Source of the DNA: Candidatus Uhrbacteria bacterium
GTDB lineage: Bacteria > Patescibacteriota > Patescibacteriia > UBA9934 > GWF2-40-263
Assembly: GCA_013204385.1 (NCBI GenBank)
Contig: JABMNY010000008.1
Span: forward strand, 1 to 39,412
Reading direction: 5' to 3'
Length of the DNA stretch: 39,412 nucleotides
Under the pieces are notes generated by a model that was not told where the DNA came from, did no database searches, and saw nothing but the letters and a program-made list of their open reading frames with translations. Made by a program: the position numbers and the translations under genes. Positions 1 through 6,934 of the stretch are shown here, in pieces (position 1 is the stretch's first letter; every line of letters begins with the position of its first letter).

Positions 1-273
1 ATTTCATCTATTGTGCGCAGATATAGAGAGGAAGAAGGAGAAGAGCAATACGAAGATATAAAAGGCAGATGTAAGGTAGCAACACTTGAAGAAATAAAAG
101 AAAATGACTACTCGCTCAATCCTGGTCGTTATGTGGAGATAATCGAAAAAGTAATGAGCGATGTTGATTTTGAAGCACGAATGAAAGAATTGATGGGTGA
201 ATTTACAGATCTGACAGACGAAGCGCATGGGCTAGAAAAGAAAATCCAAGAGGACTGGAAAACTATTTTATAA
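1..273 (+). CDS. hsdM: Type I restriction-modification methyltransferase subunit HsdM (3' end only)
   Basis: This is the C-terminal end of the DNA adenine methyltransferase subunit of a type I restriction-modification system. The frame is open from the first base (codons for I-S-S-I precede a GTG), so the gene begins before the window. The visible ~90 residues contain the SLNPGRYV stretch typical of the end of HsdM catalytic domains, followed by a charged helical tail (EARMKELMGEFTDL) of the kind that packs against HsdS. The catalytic NPPF motif and SAM site lie outside. It ends seven bases before hsdS, with which it should be cotranscribed. The family call rests on this tail and on the hsdS and hsdR genes that follow. 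The internal GTG at 13 is not a credible gene start. Confidence 0.88.
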   Translation: MSSIVRRYREEEGEEQYEDIKGRCKVATLEEIKENDYSLNPGRYVEIIEKVMSDVDFEARMKELMGEFTDLTDEAHGLEKKIQEDWKTIL

Positions 274-280
274 AAAAAAT

Positions 281-1381
281 ATGGCAACTTGGACTAAACA
301 AAAATTAGGAGATATAGCAGAAATGAAGTACGGGAAAATGCCTTCAAAAAAAAAGGTTGGTTTAGGAAACTATAAAATATTTTCAGGCTATAGATATTTC
401 GATGCGTATCCTGAAAGTAATTGTAAAAAAGGTGATGTTATTATTGTCGCTCGTGGAGTTGGTGGGACAGGTGATATTAAAATATCGAAATGTGATTGCT
501 ATTTAACCAATCTCTCAATAAAAATTTTATTAGATCAAACACAAGTTAATAATAGGTATTTTTACTATAAATATCTATTAAGCACTTTAAGATATCTAGA
601 TAGTGGGAGTGCACAGTCGCAGATAACAATTAATGATTTAGAAAAACTTCAAGTTAATCTTCCGGACCTCCCAACTCAAACCTGTATCGCCTCTGTCCTC
701 TCTGCCTACGACGATCTCATCGAAAATAACGAAAAGCGCATCAATGCATTGGAAGAAATGGCTCAACTTCTTTATACAGAATGGTTTGTGAAGTTTAAAT
801 TTCCCGGGCATGAAAAAGTGAAAATGGTTGAGAGTGGTACTGAGTATGAAATGATGCCGGAGGGGTGGGAGGTTAAAAATGTTGAAAGTTTAATTAAGCG
901 AATCCCTGTCGGTAAAAAATACGAAAATAAAAGCGTTTTTGAAACTGGAAAAGTTCCTGTATTAGACCAAGGAAAGACGGGATTAATCGGATACCACAAT
1001 GATGAACCTGGTGTGAAGGCTTCAGTTGAAAATCCTGTAATTGTTTTCGCAAATCACACTTGTTATCAAAATATTATAATGTATCCATTTTCAGCCATTC
1101 AAAATGTATTGCCATTTATACCAAATGATAAAAGAGATATTTTTTGGCTCAATTGGGCGACAAAAGATTTAATCAAGTTCAATGACTACAAGGGGCATTG
1201 GCCAGAATTTATGGCAAAGAAACTTGTTGTCCCTCCTGCTGATCTAACTAAAATATTTGGCGTTTTGGTGGGTAAATATGTTGCGTTGAGATATGAGCTA
1301 GAGATGAAGAATAAGAACCTATCAAAAAACCGCGATCTTTTAATTCCCCAATTAGTCACAGGGAAACGGGAGTTAAAATAA
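281..1381 (+). CDS. hsdS: Type I restriction-modification specificity subunit HsdS
   Basis: HsdS is the DNA-recognition subunit that places the HsdM methylase and HsdR nuclease on a bipartite target site. At 366 aa it has the usual two-half design. Target recognition domain 1 covers about residues 1-127. A central conserved helix follows at about 128-178 (LPDLPTQTCIASVLSAYDDL, then NEKRINALEEMAQ and TEWFVKFKFPGH). Recognition domain 2 starts near MPEGWEVKN (192-200), and a second conserved helix ends the protein (LSKNRDLLIPQLVTGKREL). The start ATG is seven bases after the hsdM stop with no clear Shine-Dalgarno. A run of nine A at 346-354 lies in the first recognition domain and could allow slippage. 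The gene is strongly A+T rich (20 G+C among bases 301-360), unlike the core genes downstream. Confidence 0.95.
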   Translation: MATWTKQKLGDIAEMKYGKMPSKKKVGLGNYKIFSGYRYFDAYPESNCKKGDVIIVARGVGGTGDIKISKCDCYLTNLSIKILLDQTQVNNRYFYYKYLLSTLRYLDSGSAQSQITINDLEKLQVNLPDLPTQTCIASVLSAYDDLIENNEKRINALEEMAQLLYTEWFVKFKFPGHEKVKMVESGTEYEMMPEGWEVKNVESLIKRIPVGKKYENKSVFETGKVPVLDQGKTGLIGYHNDEPGVKASVENPVIVFANHTCYQNIIMYPFSAIQNVLPFIPNDKRDIFWLNWATKDLIKFNDYKGHWPEFMAKKLVVPPADLTKIFGVLVGKYVALRYELEMKNKNLSKNRDLLIPQLVTGKRELK

Positions 1382-1385
1382 TTTT

Positions 1386-2405
1386 ATGGCAAAAACGTCT
1401 AATCAAGCTTTGAGTTTTACAAAAACTGCTATAAGTGCAGCAAAGCTTAGTATTGAGATGTTTAATAGAGTCGAACCACTACACTGGAAAGAATCTGTAC
1501 TAATGCTTAATGCGCACGCATGGGAGTTACTACTTAAAGGATCACTTTTAAAGAAGAAACAATCTATCCGCGAATCAGATGGGAAAACCATTACTGCCGA
1601 AAAAGCTTTGAATAAAGTATTTCATGAACAGAAATTAATAACAAAAGAAGAGGCAAAAACGATTGCACAGGTAATTTCATTGCGCAATGAGGCAACACAT
1701 GATCTGCTGCCTAATATTGAAGATGAAATCATGGCACACTTGATGTACTTTTCAATAACTAGTTTCAATCAATTAGTGAAGAAAGAGTTTAGATCACTAA
1801 GCGGTTCATTTGAAAAAAATTATTTGTCCATCGCTCTCGGAAATCATACCTTTTATTCCAACAAAGTTGAAAAGCTATTTAAATATTCCCGCAAGAAAAG
1901 CACAGAACAAAATCGGGTTCTATTCCTTCTGGATAGAGGTTGCGAATTTGTAGACAATGCTGCGAACACGCAAATGAAAACCAAGAAGCTTTGGGATGCG
2001 AAAGTCAAATCTTTACCTAGAAAATCCCGGGTTGCAATGCATCTCTCAGTTTACGACTATATTAATACTCAGGAAAATGTTCGTCTTCTTCCAGTTCATG
2101 TAGCTAGAGGATATACTGCATCTGTAGATGTTCATCCGTCAAAAAATCCTAATGCGCCAGTAGTTATCAAAAAGACTGACCCAAACAAAGACTTTCCACA
2201 TTTTACGAGTGATGTGGCAAGAATACTTGAAAAAGATCAAAGTTTTATTGCAAAGATGGCAAGAAAACTTGGTATTCGCCAAAATGAGGAGTACTGCTAC
2301 TTGCACAAGTTAAAAAAAGGCGAAAACCCGAAATATTCAGATAAGGGGCTGAATTATATGAAAAGTTATTTAGAAACACACCCTACGTTTAATCCATATA
2401 AATAA
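1386..2405 (+). CDS. DUF3644 protein with HEPN-like R-N-x3-H motif
   Basis: A 339-aa protein starting four bases after hsdS. I recognise the N-terminal ~135 residues as the DUF3644 type: a helical domain beginning KTAISAAKLSIEMFNRVEP, with NAHAWELLLKG at about 42-52. Residues 100-105 read R-N-E-A-T-H, which fits the R-(N/polar)-x3-H signature of HEPN ribonucleases. The C-terminal ~200 residues are basic and unassigned. DUF3644 genes are often seen in defence loci and HEPN proteins are frequently RNases, so an abortive-infection or accessory role beside the restriction system is plausible; that role is inference. It takes the slot between hsdS and hsdR, is A+T rich like its neighbours, and ends three bases before the truncated hsdR copy. 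Confidence 0.75.
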   Translation: MAKTSNQALSFTKTAISAAKLSIEMFNRVEPLHWKESVLMLNAHAWELLLKGSLLKKKQSIRESDGKTITAEKALNKVFHEQKLITKEEAKTIAQVISLRNEATHDLLPNIEDEIMAHLMYFSITSFNQLVKKEFRSLSGSFEKNYLSIALGNHTFYSNKVEKLFKYSRKKSTEQNRVLFLLDRGCEFVDNAANTQMKTKKLWDAKVKSLPRKSRVAMHLSVYDYINTQENVRLLPVHVARGYTASVDVHPSKNPNAPVVIKKTDPNKDFPHFTSDVARILEKDQSFIAKMARKLGIRQNEEYCYLHKLKKGENPKYSDKGLNYMKSYLETHPTFNPYK

Positions 2406-2408
2406 TCT

Positions 2409-2492
2409 ATGAACCAATTTTCAGAAGACAACTTAGTCGAGCAAACCGTCATTAAACTCATCAAGAAAATATAGGGTGATTCGGCGTGTCAT
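2409..2492 (+). pseudogene. Truncated duplicate of the 5' end of hsdR
   Basis: Bases 2409-2492 match the first 84 bases of hsdR (3803-3886) at 76 positions by hand alignment. The first 40 bases are identical and mismatches begin at position 42. The reading frame starts identically (MNQFSEDNLVEQTVIKLIK) but the tryptophan codon at residue 22 is TAG, so only a 21-aa peptide (2409-2474) could be made. Similarity ends abruptly near 2492. It lies directly after the DUF3644 gene, where an intact hsdR would be expected, and fic plus a full hsdR follow. The simplest reading is that an older hsdR start was left behind when a fic-hsdR segment entered. Confidence 0.9.
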
Positions 2493-2550
2493 AAATTCAG
2501 ATGGAAGCGGATGTTTTCAGAAATAGCAACAGTTAAAAGCAAAATTGCAC

Positions 2551-2646
2551 TTTGTTAAATAGAAAAGATAGAGATATTGCAAAAATGGCTAATCTGTGCT
2601 AAAATAATAGCATATTTGTTAAATGCTAAACCTAGATTTGTTAAAT
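2551..2646 (+). repeat. Three direct copies of TTTGTTAAAT around the fic promoter
   Basis: The ten-base word TTTGTTAAAT occurs exactly at 2551-2560, 2615-2624 and 2637-2646. It therefore flanks the fic promoter and fills its leader. An inverted repeat, TGCTA-N6-TAGCA, lies at 2597-2612 over the -10 box, and TGCTAAA recurs at 2624-2630. The arrangement resembles an operator region of a self-regulated cassette. The regulator is not identified; the Fic protein's own C-terminal region is one candidate. Confidence 0.55.
2577..2605 (+). promoter_or_regulatory. Sigma70-type promoter of fic
   Basis: TTGCAA at 2577-2582, a 17-base spacer, and TAAAAT at 2600-2605 preceded by TGC (extended -10). Transcription would start near 2612, leaving a leader of about 43 bases before the ATG at 2655. 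It lies between the hsdR remnant and fic, so fic and the coupled hsdR can be expressed apart from hsdM and hsdS. Confidence 0.55.
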
Positions 2647-2654
2647 CTTTTTCT

Positions 2655-3806
2655 ATGGACTACCCAAAAATCGACATCCCACAATTCAATTTTGACTCAC
2701 CTCTCACCAATTTGGTGATTCGTCTGGACCATCTACGGACAAAACAGCTTACCGGCACCACCCCTGCCCCTGTATTTTTTGACCTCAAACGTCTATTTCA
2801 TATATTGGAAAGTGTCCAATCTGCCAGAATTGAGGGCAACCGCACTACCATTGCCGAGATCATCGATTCTCGTATAGAAAAAAAACCTGTAGGCAATGAT
2901 GAACAATTTCGTGAGATTGAGAATATTGAAAAAGCATTACAATTTATCGATGAGAATGTTATTGATTTTTCTATCAACAGACTGTTTATATCGCATCTGC
3001 ATAAGCTTGTGGTAGACGGTCTGACGCGCGAAGGCAGTAGTACACCTGGGCAATATAGAAAAGGAGCAATTGCTATTCAAAACTCCCCTCACCAGCCACC
3101 AGATGGCATCCATGTACAAGATTTGATGGATGAGCTTGTTGTGTTTATCCACAAAGAGGACGATAAAAAATATGATTTGCTGAAAATTGCCATTGCTCAT
3201 CACCGCTTTACATGGATTCATCCGTTTGATAATGGCAATGGGAGAATGTCTCGCCTCATAACCTACGCAATGTTAGTCAAGTTTGGATTTAATGTAGATA
3301 AAAGCGGTCGAGTGCTCAACCCAACTGGACTGTTTTGCACTGATCGGCAAAAATATTACGATATGCTGGGCGATGCCGATGTAAATGGTAACGCAGGCAT
3401 GGTTAATTGGTGTATTTATGTATTGGAAGGATTGGTAGTGGAGATGGAAAAAATAGATAAACTTGCGAATTACGAATACCTATCAACACATATTTTGACC
3501 CCCGCTATACAGTACGCCCAGAAAGTCGGATCAGTGAGTGCAGAAGAATATCTCGCCCTCAAATATGCAGTGGACAAAAGCGTCTTGACCGCAGGTGGTC
3601 TTAAAGAGGTTTTTCCTGATTACTATCCGGTAAAATTATCTCGCTTTATCGCTGATATGAAACAAAAGCACTTTCTTTTGGCATACCCAAATCCAAACAG
3701 CAAATCGTATGTCATGAGTTTTTCTCAAAACAAACTACTCCGATACGTGGCGCGTGAACTGATGGATAAAGGCTTTATTCTTTCTGAAGATAAAGAAAGT
3801 TTATGA
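2655..3806 (+). CDS. Fic-family protein (predicted AMPylase) with N-terminal inhibitory motif
   Basis: A 383-aa Fic/DOC-fold enzyme, a family that usually transfers AMP from ATP to a hydroxyl side chain of a target protein. The active-site motif is complete: HPFDNGNGRMSR at 189-200, with the catalytic His at 189. An inhibitory (S/T)xxxE(G/N) motif, SARIEG at 56-61, lies N-terminal as in class II Fic proteins, so activity should be self-restrained. The C-terminal ~100 residues look like a winged-helix region. The ATG at 2655 is preferred over a TTG at 2577, because the extra 26 residues are unlike the family and the TTG is part of the predicted -35 box. The stop overlaps the hsdR start (ATGA at 3803-3806), which couples their translation. 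Its target is unknown; it could modify HsdR, or guard or silence the restriction system. Confidence 0.93.
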   Translation: MDYPKIDIPQFNFDSPLTNLVIRLDHLRTKQLTGTTPAPVFFDLKRLFHILESVQSARIEGNRTTIAEIIDSRIEKKPVGNDEQFREIENIEKALQFIDENVIDFSINRLFISHLHKLVVDGLTREGSSTPGQYRKGAIAIQNSPHQPPDGIHVQDLMDELVVFIHKEDDKKYDLLKIAIAHHRFTWIHPFDNGNGRMSRLITYAMLVKFGFNVDKSGRVLNPTGLFCTDRQKYYDMLGDADVNGNAGMVNWCIYVLEGLVVEMEKIDKLANYEYLSTHILTPAIQYAQKVGSVSAEEYLALKYAVDKSVLTAGGLKEVFPDYYPVKLSRFIADMKQKHFLLAYPNPNSKSYVMSFSQNKLLRYVARELMDKGFILSEDKESL

Positions 3807-6800
3807 ACCAATTTTCAGAAGACAACTTAGTCGAGCAAACCGTTATCAAACTCATCAAAGAAATATGGGATGATTCGGCTTGCCATATCAATGCTTATTC
3901 TGATACCGAGGACGCTAAACTCGGGCGTGAGCATCGTGGTGAAGTGGTGCTAAAAAAATATTTATTACCCGCCCTTCAAAAAATCAATCCAACATTGCCA
4001 AATGATGCACTTGAACAAGCAATCGAAATCATCACTCGTGATAGATCAAACCTTAATTTGGTAAAAGCCAATCAAGGAATTTATAAACTTTTGCAAAATG
4101 GCGCAAATGTAAATGTAGCCAAAGAGAATGGCGACACGGATACAGAGCGAGTTCAATTTTTTGATTTTGAAAAACCAGAGAATAATAATTTCTTGGCTGT
4201 ATCTCAGCTTTGGATTGTTGGCGAAATGTACACACGCAGACCTGACGTAATTCTTTATGTAAATGGTATTCCTTTAGTTTTATTAGAACTCAAAGCGTCA
4301 CACAAAAGCCTGGTAGATGCTCATCACGACAATATTCGTGATTATAAAGACACTATTCCAAAGCTCTTTTGGTATAACATGGGAATTATTATCAGTAATG
4401 GTATTGAAAATAAATTTGGATCACTTACTGCACCTTATGAATTTTTTAATGAATGGAAAAAATCCGCAAGTGAAGATGAAAAACCAAAAACTGATTTACA
4501 AACAATTCTCTCTGGGATCTGTGACAAAACTAGATTATTGGATATCTTTGAAAACTATATTTTGTTTGATGAGGCTAAAAGCGAAGTAAAAAAGATTGTA
4601 CCGCGTTATTTTCAATATTTGGGGGTAAATCGTGCCTTTAAAAATGTGGTGAACCGAGAGAATCTAGATGGAAAACTCGGCGTATTTTGGCACACGCAAG
4701 GCTCTGGAAAATCATATTCTATGTTATGGCTCTCACAAAAAGCCCTCAGAAAACTTACTGGGAATTTTACATTTGTGATTGTAACAGACAGAACACAGCT
4801 TGATACTCAAGCGTACAAAAATTTCGTTAATGTTGGTGTTATTCACGAATCAAAAATACATGCTGACAGCATTGTCCATCTAAAAGAATTGCTGGCACAA
4901 GATCATCGCCAAATATTCACCACAATTCAAAAATTTCAGGATATTTCAGGCGCCATATCTGAACGTAAAGACATTATTGTGATGACTGACGAAGCGCATC
5001 GTACGCAATATGACCGCATGGCTCTCAACATGCGTAAATCTTTACCAAACGCCTCTTTTATTGGCTTTACAGGAACACCACTTATGGCAGATGGCGAAGC
5101 CGAGACGGAAAGGACTTTTGGTAAATATGTTTCAGTTTATAACTTTGGTCAATCAGTAGCAGATGGGGCAACAGTGCCACTCTATTACGAAAATCGAGTA
5201 CCAAGCTTGAAGAATGTTAATGAAAATCTTGAAGAACAAATGGGACAACTCATGGATAGATATGACCTAGATGAAGACGAAGAGGAAAAGATAGAGCAAG
5301 AATTCTCAACTTTTTATGAGATTATTACCCGTGAAGATCGCTTAAACACCATTGCTCGCGACATTGTGGAACATTATGTGGGAAGAGGATATGACGGGAA
5401 AGCAATGGTGGTGTCTCTCGACAAAAAAACCACTTTTCGCATGTATGACAAAGTTAAAAAGGAGTGGGATCGCTATATCGCCAAATTACGCATGGATCTC
5501 TCGCGTACAAAAGATGAACGAGAACAAGAAAAGATTTTGGCAAAATTAGAACAACACGAAAATGTTGATATGGCCGTCATGGTGAGTCTTGGTGGCAATC
5601 AAAACGAAATTGCCGACATGGAAGAATATGAAATTGATGTAAAACCAATTCGAGAAAGAATAATTCACGAAGATTTGGAGAAAGAATTCAAAGACCCTGA
5701 TAGTAATCTGCGAATTATATTTGTTTGTGCAATGTGGCTTACAGGTTTTGACGTTCCAAATCTATCAACTTTGTATCTTGATAAACCGTTAAAAAATCAC
5801 ACGTTAATGCAAACCATTGCGCGTGCCAATCGCGTAGCAGATGAAGGCAAAAAGAACGGACTTATTGTTGATTATATTGGTGTATTCAAAAACATTGAAC
5901 GTGCTTTAGCTTTGTATGCAGCCAACGGACTTTATGAGGATGAAATAATCAAAAGTAAAGATGAACTGTTAAATGACTTGAAGAACACATTACGTACTGT
6001 TAAAGAATTTTTGAGAGCTGAACAGATTGAACTTGAGCCATTATTGTTAGCGCCAGCTGAACAAAAACTGTTGTTGCTTGAAAAATACGCCAATACAATT
6101 ATTGGGGGGCAGGAAAAGAAAAAGAAGTTTTTAAACCTTGCCAGTGATTTACATAGTGCATACCGCTCAGTATTACCTGATCCAGATGCAGAAGATTATT
6201 ATCATGAAGTTACAGCTGTTCGTGTACTTGCTTCCCGGATTCGCGATGTGGGTTCACAAAGTATTGATGTTTCCCAAGTTAAAAAAGATTTGGAAGATCT
6301 ACTAAATAAATCGATCCAAACAGGAGAATATGTAATATCTGCCCACAAAAAAATAAAAGACCTAAGTGCACTTGATGCTGATGCATTGCAAGCATTTTTT
6401 GCAGGCCTAGACAACAAAAATTTACAAGTTGAAGCAATGACAGCTGAGCTAGAAAAGAAGATTACAGAAATGGTAAAGAGAAACAAGAAGCGTGCAAAAT
6501 TTATGGAAAGGCTTATGTCACTTTTGAAGGAATATAATAGTGGCGCACATGACGTTGATCAACTCTTTGATGATCTAGTCACCCTTGCAAAAGATTTGGA
6601 TGAGGAAGAACAACGAGCTGTAAAAGAAAATTTGAATGAAGATGAATTGGCAATTTTCGATCTATTAGTTAAAGAAAATCTGAATCCAGATGAGGTGTCT
6701 AGTATTAAAAATTCAACTCATGAATTGCTAGAAAACCTTAGACCACTTTTAGTGCCACACTGGAGAGATTTTGAAGTAAATCGGGCTGGAGTGAAAATCG

Positions 6801-6934
6801 TAATATCAGATTTATTATTCACAAAATTGCCAGAGCCAACATATACAGAAAAAGAATGTGAACTGAAAGGCTTGGAGGTTTACAATTTTGTTTATGAACA
6901 TTATCAAGATGCTAGAAGCTTGGCATACGCTTAA
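3803..6934 (+). CDS. hsdR: Type I restriction enzyme ATP-dependent endonuclease subunit HsdR
   Basis: A 1043-aa motor and nuclease subunit that translocates DNA and cuts it when the HsdS target is unmethylated. The PD-(D/E)xK nuclease is visible as RRPDVILYV with D148, then E162-L-K164. The superfamily 2 helicase follows: Walker A TQGSGKS at 298-304, DEAH at 396-399, GFTGTPL near 423, then LTGFDVPNL and QTIARANRV as later motifs. A long helical C-terminal region should contact the methylase. All catalytic motifs are intact and the length is normal. The start overlaps fic by four bases. Its first 84 bases are duplicated upstream at 2409-2492. A terminator follows at 7033-7060. Confidence 0.97.
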   Translation: MNQFSEDNLVEQTVIKLIKEIWDDSACHINAYSDTEDAKLGREHRGEVVLKKYLLPALQKINPTLPNDALEQAIEIITRDRSNLNLVKANQGIYKLLQNGANVNVAKENGDTDTERVQFFDFEKPENNNFLAVSQLWIVGEMYTRRPDVILYVNGIPLVLLELKASHKSLVDAHHDNIRDYKDTIPKLFWYNMGIIISNGIENKFGSLTAPYEFFNEWKKSASEDEKPKTDLQTILSGICDKTRLLDIFENYILFDEAKSEVKKIVPRYFQYLGVNRAFKNVVNRENLDGKLGVFWHTQGSGKSYSMLWLSQKALRKLTGNFTFVIVTDRTQLDTQAYKNFVNVGVIHESKIHADSIVHLKELLAQDHRQIFTTIQKFQDISGAISERKDIIVMTDEAHRTQYDRMALNMRKSLPNASFIGFTGTPLMADGEAETERTFGKYVSVYNFGQSVADGATVPLYYENRVPSLKNVNENLEEQMGQLMDRYDLDEDEEEKIEQEFSTFYEIITREDRLNTIARDIVEHYVGRGYDGKAMVVSLDKKTTFRMYDKVKKEWDRYIAKLRMDLSRTKDEREQEKILAKLEQHENVDMAVMVSLGGNQNEIADMEEYEIDVKPIRERIIHEDLEKEFKDPDSNLRIIFVCAMWLTGFDVPNLSTLYLDKPLKNHTLMQTIARANRVADEGKKNGLIVDYIGVFKNIERALALYAANGLYEDEIIKSKDELLNDLKNTLRTVKEFLRAEQIELEPLLLAPAEQKLLLLEKYANTIIGGQEKKKKFLNLASDLHSAYRSVLPDPDAEDYYHEVTAVRVLASRIRDVGSQSIDVSQVKKDLEDLLNKSIQTGEYVISAHKKIKDLSALDADALQAFFAGLDNKNLQVEAMTAELEKKITEMVKRNKKRAKFMERLMSLLKEYNSGAHDVDQLFDDLVTLAKDLDEEEQRAVKENLNEDELAIFDLLVKENLNPDEVSSIKNSTHELLENLRPLLVPHWRDFEVNRAGVKIVISDLLFTKLPEPTYTEKECELKGLEVYNFVYEHYQDARSLAYA

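What the first reader, a model, noticed from the sequence alone, without database searches (positions are those of the whole stretch)
2409..3886. Fic gene sits between a dead copy and a live copy of the 5' end of hsdR
The first 84 bases of hsdR are duplicated just after the DUF3644 gene (76 of 84 identical by hand count), and the copy is killed by a TAG at codon 22. Between the two copies lie only a promoter region and fic, whose stop overlaps the live hsdR start. This suggests that the ancestral order was hsdM-hsdS-DUF3644-hsdR and that a fic-hsdR segment replaced or displaced the old hsdR. Fic placed as a translationally coupled partner of HsdR is worth study as a control or guard module of a type I system. 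The sequence scar is directly seen; the history is inferred.
Basis: partly seen in the sequence, partly recalled or inferred. Interest (0 to 1): 0.78.

Follow-up and report, generated by a model that had tools for sequence, protein, structure and literature searches.

The report
Swapped toxin gene left restriction scar
A bacterial DNA-restriction locus keeps a swappable slot just before its cutting-enzyme gene, and here a self-regulated Fic toxin gene was added to it behind an older accessory gene, leaving a dead stub of the cutting-enzyme gene that records how such slots change hands.

Summary
Window 2409-2492 repeats the first 84 bases of hsdR (76/84 identical, TAG at codon 22), and the own genome holds no other copy.

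(1) The stub is probably a different hsdR allele, not a decayed copy of the live gene: its differing bases are mostly ones found in other natural hsdR genes.

(2) The locus belongs to a type I family in which 22 of 23 related loci carry exchangeable accessory genes between hsdS and hsdR (PARIS-like, AbiP2-like, NucC-like, OLD-like, PrrC-like, HEPN and others). Both junctions here (DUF3644|stub and fic|hsdR) are typical slot junctions, so two cargo genes are stacked.

(3) Fic is not a plain operon gene. It is a class II Fic related to Yersinia CccR, an AMPylating toxin that represses its own promoter. It carries its own promoter with repeated TGTTAAAT sites, conserved before related fic genes. 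One of these, in an unrelated EcoEI-type locus (L066), again lies between hsdS and hsdR.

I propose that an autorepressed Fic promoter now also feeds hsdR. This is inferred, not shown. New variant of a known kind.

The parts
1..273 (+). 3' end of hsdM (methyltransferase subunit); the contig begins inside it
   Evidence: Pfam N6_Mtase E 8.3e-7, PADLOC MTase_I E 7.6e-20
281..1381 (+). hsdS (specificity subunit)
   Evidence: Pfam Methylase_S E 5.4e-24
1386..2405 (+). older slot gene: DUF3644 HEPN-type predicted RNase, Rx4H motif RNEATH at residues 100-105
   Evidence: Pfam DUF3644 E 9.1e-15, PADLOC PDC-S19 E 1.1e-26; motif
2409..2492 (+). dead stub of a former hsdR 5' end (different allele), TAG at codon 22; homology ends about 2493
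   Evidence: 76/84 identity; nhmmer E 1.8e-25; allele test
2493..2654 (+). fic promoter region; sigma70-like promoter 2577-2605 (TTGCAA-17-TAAAAT)
   Evidence: no related sequence in the fetched loci
2553..2560 (+). TGTTAAAT box 1, candidate Fic operator
2617..2624 (+). TGTTAAAT box 2
2639..2646 (+). TGTTAAAT box 3, 16 bases before the fic ATG
2655..3806 (+). fic: class II Fic (predicted AMPylase), inhibitory helix SARIEG at residue 56, FIC motif HPFDNGNGRMSR at residue 189, C-terminal region homologous to the HTH part of CccR
   Evidence: Pfam Fic E 8.7e-15, PADLOC SoFic E 3.4e-43; PDB 7xux E 7.3e-100 over residues 11-375; motifs
3803..3806 (+). ATGA: hsdR start overlapping the fic stop
   Evidence: same +3 overlap class in six other loci
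3803..6934 (+). hsdR, intact, 1043 aa
   Evidence: Pfam HSDR_N, SWI2_SNF2, T1RH-like_C; close relatives mostly 68-86% identical

Best explanation
The locus is a type I restriction-modification operon with an exchangeable accessory-gene slot between hsdS and hsdR. The slot first held a HEPN-type DUF3644 gene placed directly before hsdR. A second accessory unit, an autoregulated class II fic gene already joined to an hsdR start, then entered by recombination at the hsdR 5' end. This left the old start as a dead 84-base stub between the two cargo genes. SHOWN: the slot and its turnover in relatives, native-type junctions on both cargo genes, the stub's differences following natural allele states, and the conserved box pattern before fic. 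INFERRED: the direction of the event and its route. One route is replacement anchored by homology on one side. The other is a single crossover in the 41 identical bases, which would explain why those bases are identical and the next 43 are not. INFERRED function: DUF3644 (RNase) and Fic (AMPylation of host proteins) act as growth-arresting back-up effectors to restriction. Because a Fic relative represses its own promoter and no terminator was found between fic and hsdR, the Fic-repressed promoter probably also sets part of HsdR output.
For: Stub real and unique in the genome. The 8 differences match states seen in natural hsdR alleles: simulation p <= 5.5e-4 against neutral decay of the live copy, and 0.003-0.023 if 20-50% of the changes arose in the live copy. 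Of 67 allele pairs about equally diverged over bases 42-84, only this pair shares 41/41 in bases 1-41. Slot census: 22/23 loci filled, cargo ending -17 to +3 from the hsdR start; DUF3644|stub (-4) and fic|hsdR (+3) are the two commonest junction classes. Cargo families differ locus to locus. Exchange: L028/L029 have HsdR 90% identical but unrelated slot genes, while L024/L028 have slot genes 78% and HsdR 72.5% identical. DNA similarity stops at the hsdS 3' end and resumes at -6 of hsdR. Fic: TGTTAAAT boxes 64-66 bases apart before the window fic and four relatives; related doubled boxes in two more. L066: hsdS stop, boxes, fic, small Zn-ribbon-like ORF, EcoEI-type hsdR. Homolog CccR AMPylates FtsZ and represses its own promoter (PMC9755527). 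DUF3644 overlaps an R-M-linked HEPN family (PMC3710099).
Against: Only one locus of 26 shows a stub, so this route of exchange is seen once. 84 bases cannot be placed on a tree, and the allele argument is statistical. The donor fic-hsdR locus was not found. The TGTTAAAT boxes are direct repeats, unlike the inverted 10-base boxes of CccR, and binding is untested. The window is a fragmented-assembly contig that starts inside hsdM, and reads are not available.
Confidence: 0.7

Rival explanations
1. Simple local duplication: the live hsdR start was copied upstream, for example when fic inserted with a flanking duplication, and the copy decayed.
For: The first 41 bases are identical, as a recent copy would be; own hsdR is the best single match to the whole stub.
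Against: Differences are clustered in bases 42-84 and follow natural allele states rather than random sites. The stub sits at a native-type slot junction.
Confidence: 0.14
2. Fic is a guard, like PrrC in EcoprrI: held inactive by the restriction complex and released when a phage inhibits it, with no part in transcription control.
For: Position between hsdS and hsdR as in type I loci with embedded effectors; R-M-linked HEPN and DOC toxins were proposed as multi-level defence (PMC3710099; review PMC12707154).
Against: The fic lineage is mostly solitary, has its own inhibitory helix, and brings its own promoter and boxes, so it does not need HsdR partners to be silent. No interaction was tested.
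Confidence: 0.3
3. Fic is an independent self-inhibited toxin or single-gene defence that merely landed in a permissive slot; HsdR is expressed by read-through from the hsdM promoter.
For: No + strand terminator found between DUF3644 and hsdR; relatives solitary; PADLOC model SoFic.
Against: The same lineage entered the same position in an unrelated type I locus, L066; the ATGA overlap suggests coupled translation.
Confidence: 0.35
4. The stub is a functional leader: a 21-codon ORF coupled to DUF3644 that regulates downstream genes.
For: It has an intact start 3 bases after the DUF3644 stop.
Against: Absent from all 25 other loci examined; its sequence is the hsdR start itself.
Confidence: 0.03
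5. Assembly artefact joining loci of two strains through the 41-base identity.
For: The contig starts inside hsdM and several relatives' contigs end inside hsdR, a sign of hard-to-assemble variable loci.
Against: A join through the identity would skip or swap fic, not create a stopped stub followed by unrelated DNA; any such join still needs a broken copy in some strain.
Confidence: 0.07

Closest known systems
Accessory genes inside type I loci: E. coli prrC (EcoprrI), Campylobacter rlo genes, EPEC DarTG2
   Same: An effector or other non-hsd gene lies inside the hsd locus (for DarTG2 exactly between hsdS and hsdR) and is carried with the restriction system (PMC12255303; PMC12707154; PMC2928727).
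   Different: Here two cargo genes are stacked with a stub of hsdR between them, and the second cargo carries its own box-bearing promoter.
CccR, Yersinia Fic toxin and transcription factor (PDB 7xux)
   Same: Near full-length homology over residues 11-375, same class II inhibitory motif SARIEG, same unusual N in the FIC motif (PMC9755527).
   Different: CccR is a secreted effector next to T6SS genes with inverted operator boxes; here the gene is embedded in a type I locus with direct TGTTAAAT repeats.
SoFic single-gene anti-phage defence
   Same: Best PADLOC model (E 3.4e-43); Fic protein of similar size.
   Different: Closest solved relative is CccR (E 7e-100), SoFic only 2e-9; defence activity of this protein is untested.
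RptR repressor of type I loci
   Same: A DNA-binding protein encoded in the locus represses a type I restriction promoter (PMC12255303).
   Different: RptR is a small repressor encoded first in its island; here the candidate repressor is a Fic enzyme directly ahead of hsdR.

Membership tests
Type I restriction-modification system | hsdM, hsdS and hsdR subunits in one locus | tested here: met
   Pfam and PADLOC hits; hsdM only partly in the contig
Type I restriction-modification system | methylation and cleavage activity | not testable with these tools
   no activity data
Type I accessory (embedded) gene slot | non-hsd gene between hsdS and hsdR, exchanged among related loci | tested here: met
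   22/23 relatives filled, cargo families differ, flanks conserved
Class II Fic protein | (S/T)xxxE(G/N) inhibitory motif N-terminal to the FIC motif | tested here: met
   SARIEG at 56, FIC motif at 189
Class II Fic protein | FIC motif HxFx(D/E)GN(G/K)R in the strict form | tested here: not met
   HPFDNGNGRMSR has N where the consensus has D/E; the active toxin CccR (HPFGNGNGR) has N there too (PMC9755527), so activity is not excluded
CccR-like autoregulated Fic | C-terminal HTH that binds the gene's own promoter | tested here: inconclusive
   homology including the HTH region and conserved boxes; binding not measured
PrrC/RloC anticodon nuclease | ABC-ATPase fused to HEPN nuclease | tested here: not met
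   neither DUF3644 nor Fic has an ABC/AAA domain hit in Pfam
SoFic defence system | protection against phage by AMPylation | not testable with these tools
   model hit only
HEPN ribonuclease | Rx4-6H motif | tested here: met
   RNEATH at 100 in the DUF3644 protein; motif definition PMC3710099

The most novel reading that the evidence does not exclude
Fic acts as a controller of a type I restriction enzyme. A self-inhibited Fic enzyme that represses its own promoter has been placed twice independently (window, L066) between hsdS and hsdR, so that HsdR is made only when Fic leaves its operators. That would separate restriction from methylation in time and link restriction output to a growth-arresting enzyme.
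Probability: 0.3. Interest if true: 0.75.

Novelty: new variant of a known kind. Interest (0 to 1): 0.55.

Why it matters
Embedding of toxins and defence genes inside type I loci is known, but how the cargo is exchanged is rarely visible. Here the exchange has left a readable scar at the hsdR start, the point where similarity between relatives also resumes. The locus further suggests a testable link between a Fic enzyme's autorepressed promoter and expression of a restriction subunit.

Tried and rejected
A third degenerate hsdR start near 2513-2545 (shared TTTTCAGAA): not convincing, shuffle p 0.03-0.24 by scoring scheme. Extension of the stub beyond base 85: not significant (68 of 200 shuffles reach the score). 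Other hsdR or hsdS stubs in the related loci: none for hsdR; the hsdS extras were only mispicked true ends. IMG/VR scans with HsdR and Fic: no relatives. Sliding nearest-neighbour scan of hsdR for one clear recombination breakpoint: nearest relative changes along the gene, no single breakpoint. Fic tree: inner order unresolved. Plasmid Fic relatives: not in type I loci, though one lies beside a KilA-N gene and a phage tail gene.

Full report
CHECK. The repeat is as described. 2409-2492 matches 3803-3886 at 76 of 84 bases, with the first 41 identical and a TAG at codon 22. The whole genome (G000, 48 contigs) holds only these two places. Homology ends near base 85 of hsdR. The gene calls hold: HsdM end, HsdS, DUF3644, Fic, HsdR. 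The window is the whole contig C46, and it begins inside hsdM.

RELATIVES. One scan of genome contigs with HsdR gave 31 loci, most of them roughly 68-86% identical to the window protein, mainly from Patescibacteria but also from Elusimicrobia, Omnitrophica, WOR-1 and Bacteroidetes records. In 22 of 23 loci with hsdS and hsdR both present, one or more genes sit between them and end between 17 bases before the hsdR start and 3 bases into it. The cargo differs: PARIS-type AriAB (L024, and L028 by 78% identity), AbiP2-type reverse transcriptase (L032), NucC-like DUF6602 (L027, and L029 by Pfam), OLD/AriA-type ATPases (L022, L038, L045, L049), split PDC-S06 AAA genes (L026, and L030 by identity), UvrD (L031), ClpP-like (L035), HEPN plus KAP NTPase (L040), DUF4145 (L036), DUF3644 (L033). 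A second slot between hsdM and hsdS holds RhuM, Bro-N, KilA-N, DUF3800 or Fic.

EXCHANGE. L028 and L029 have HsdR 90% identical but unrelated slot genes. L024 and L028 have slot genes 78% identical with HsdR only 72.5%. In L028 versus L029, DNA similarity runs to the last 54 bases of hsdS, is lost across the cargo, and resumes 6 bases before the hsdR start. The hsdS end and hsdR start are therefore the borders of exchange, and the stub is exactly such a border.

WHAT THE STUB IS. DUF3644 ends 3 bases before the stub's ATG, the same spacing as in six other loci; fic overlaps the live ATG by ATGA, as in six other loci. Both cargo genes thus sit at native-type hsdR junctions. Of the 8 differing bases, 7 are states found in other hsdR genes, and only the stop is not. 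Random mutation of the live copy reaches this score in at most 5.5e-4 of simulations. Allowing 20-50% of the changes to have arisen in the live gene gives 0.003-0.023. The stub is therefore most likely another allele. Its first 41 bases equal the live gene more closely than for any other pair of comparable divergence, which suggests recombination or conversion there. Two routes fit: one-sided homologous replacement by a fic-hsdR piece, or a single crossover within the 41 bases by a circle carrying the other hsdR start and fic. I cannot choose between them. No other locus has a stub.

FIC. The protein is a class II Fic with SARIEG before HPFDNGNGRMSR. Its closest solved relative is 7xux (E 7.3e-100, residues 11-375), which is CccR of Yersinia pseudotuberculosis: it AMPylates FtsZ and represses its own promoter through its C-terminal HTH (PMC9755527). 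Before the window fic, TGTTAAAT occurs at 2553, 2617 and 2639; six copies exist in 39 kb, 2.3 expected. Relatives L059-L062 have two or three copies with 65-66 base spacing and the last copy just before the start codon. L070 has TGTTAATT and L071 TGCTACAT repeated in similar places. Most relatives are solitary genes. L066 is an exception: hsdM, a Schlafen AlbA_2 gene, hsdS, then boxes beginning 2 bases after the hsdS stop, fic, a small Zn-ribbon-like ORF and an EcoEI-type hsdR. Its Fic is 62% identical to that of L067, a solitary gene from the same taxonomic family, and about 45% to the window's, so the two captures look independent; the tree itself is unresolved.

FUNCTION (inferred). DUF3644 carries an Rx4H HEPN motif and Fic an AMPylation domain, so the locus combines DNA, RNA and protein attack, a design proposed for R-M linked HEPN and DOC genes (PMC3710099). 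No + strand terminator was found between DUF3644 and hsdR, and the promoter-like matches in that stretch are about as many as chance gives. I therefore think the Fic-regulated promoter contributes to hsdR transcription. Guard and passenger readings remain open; the confidences of the functional rivals overlap with the best explanation because they concern its last step only.

NOVELTY. Genes embedded in hsd loci are known (prrC, rlo genes, DarTG2; PMC12707154, PMC2928727, PMC12255303). The stacked cargo with an hsdR stub and the repeated placing of an apparently autoregulated Fic before hsdR are, as far as the searched library shows, not described. Papers in subscription journals and preprints were not searchable.

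Noticed in passing
L024:8486-9994 and L028:8497-9993: AriAB (PARIS)-type fusion genes sit in the hsdS-hsdR slot of two Peregrinibacteria loci; the L024 protein matches the PADLOC AriAB model at E 5e-114.
   Followed up: partly
L066:4463-11427: Unrelated EcoEI-type type I locus with a Schlafen AlbA_2 gene between hsdM and hsdS and the same Fic lineage plus a small Zn-ribbon-like ORF between hsdS and hsdR.
   Followed up: partly
L035:8537-8599: hsdR of this Peregrinibacteria locus, 86-88% identical in DNA to the window's, is broken by a net loss of about 145 bases after codon 246.
   Followed up: no
L037:6724-8223: hsdR interrupted by about 1.5 kb holding two reverse-strand ORFs of unknown family; this is also the only locus with an empty hsdS-hsdR slot.
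   Followed up: no
L025:8522-9985 and L041:8523-9986: A 488-aa slot protein shared at 77% identity by two loci; no Pfam and no PADLOC hit for the L025 copy, a candidate new defence gene.
   Followed up: no
L200:3465-6982: On an E. coli conjugative plasmid the same slot before a related hsdR holds RecQ helicase and DprA genes.
   Followed up: no
L197:4728-7131: Pasteurella plasmid with a phage tail gene carries a KilA-N gene followed by a CccR-like Fic (46% identical to the window's).
   Followed up: no
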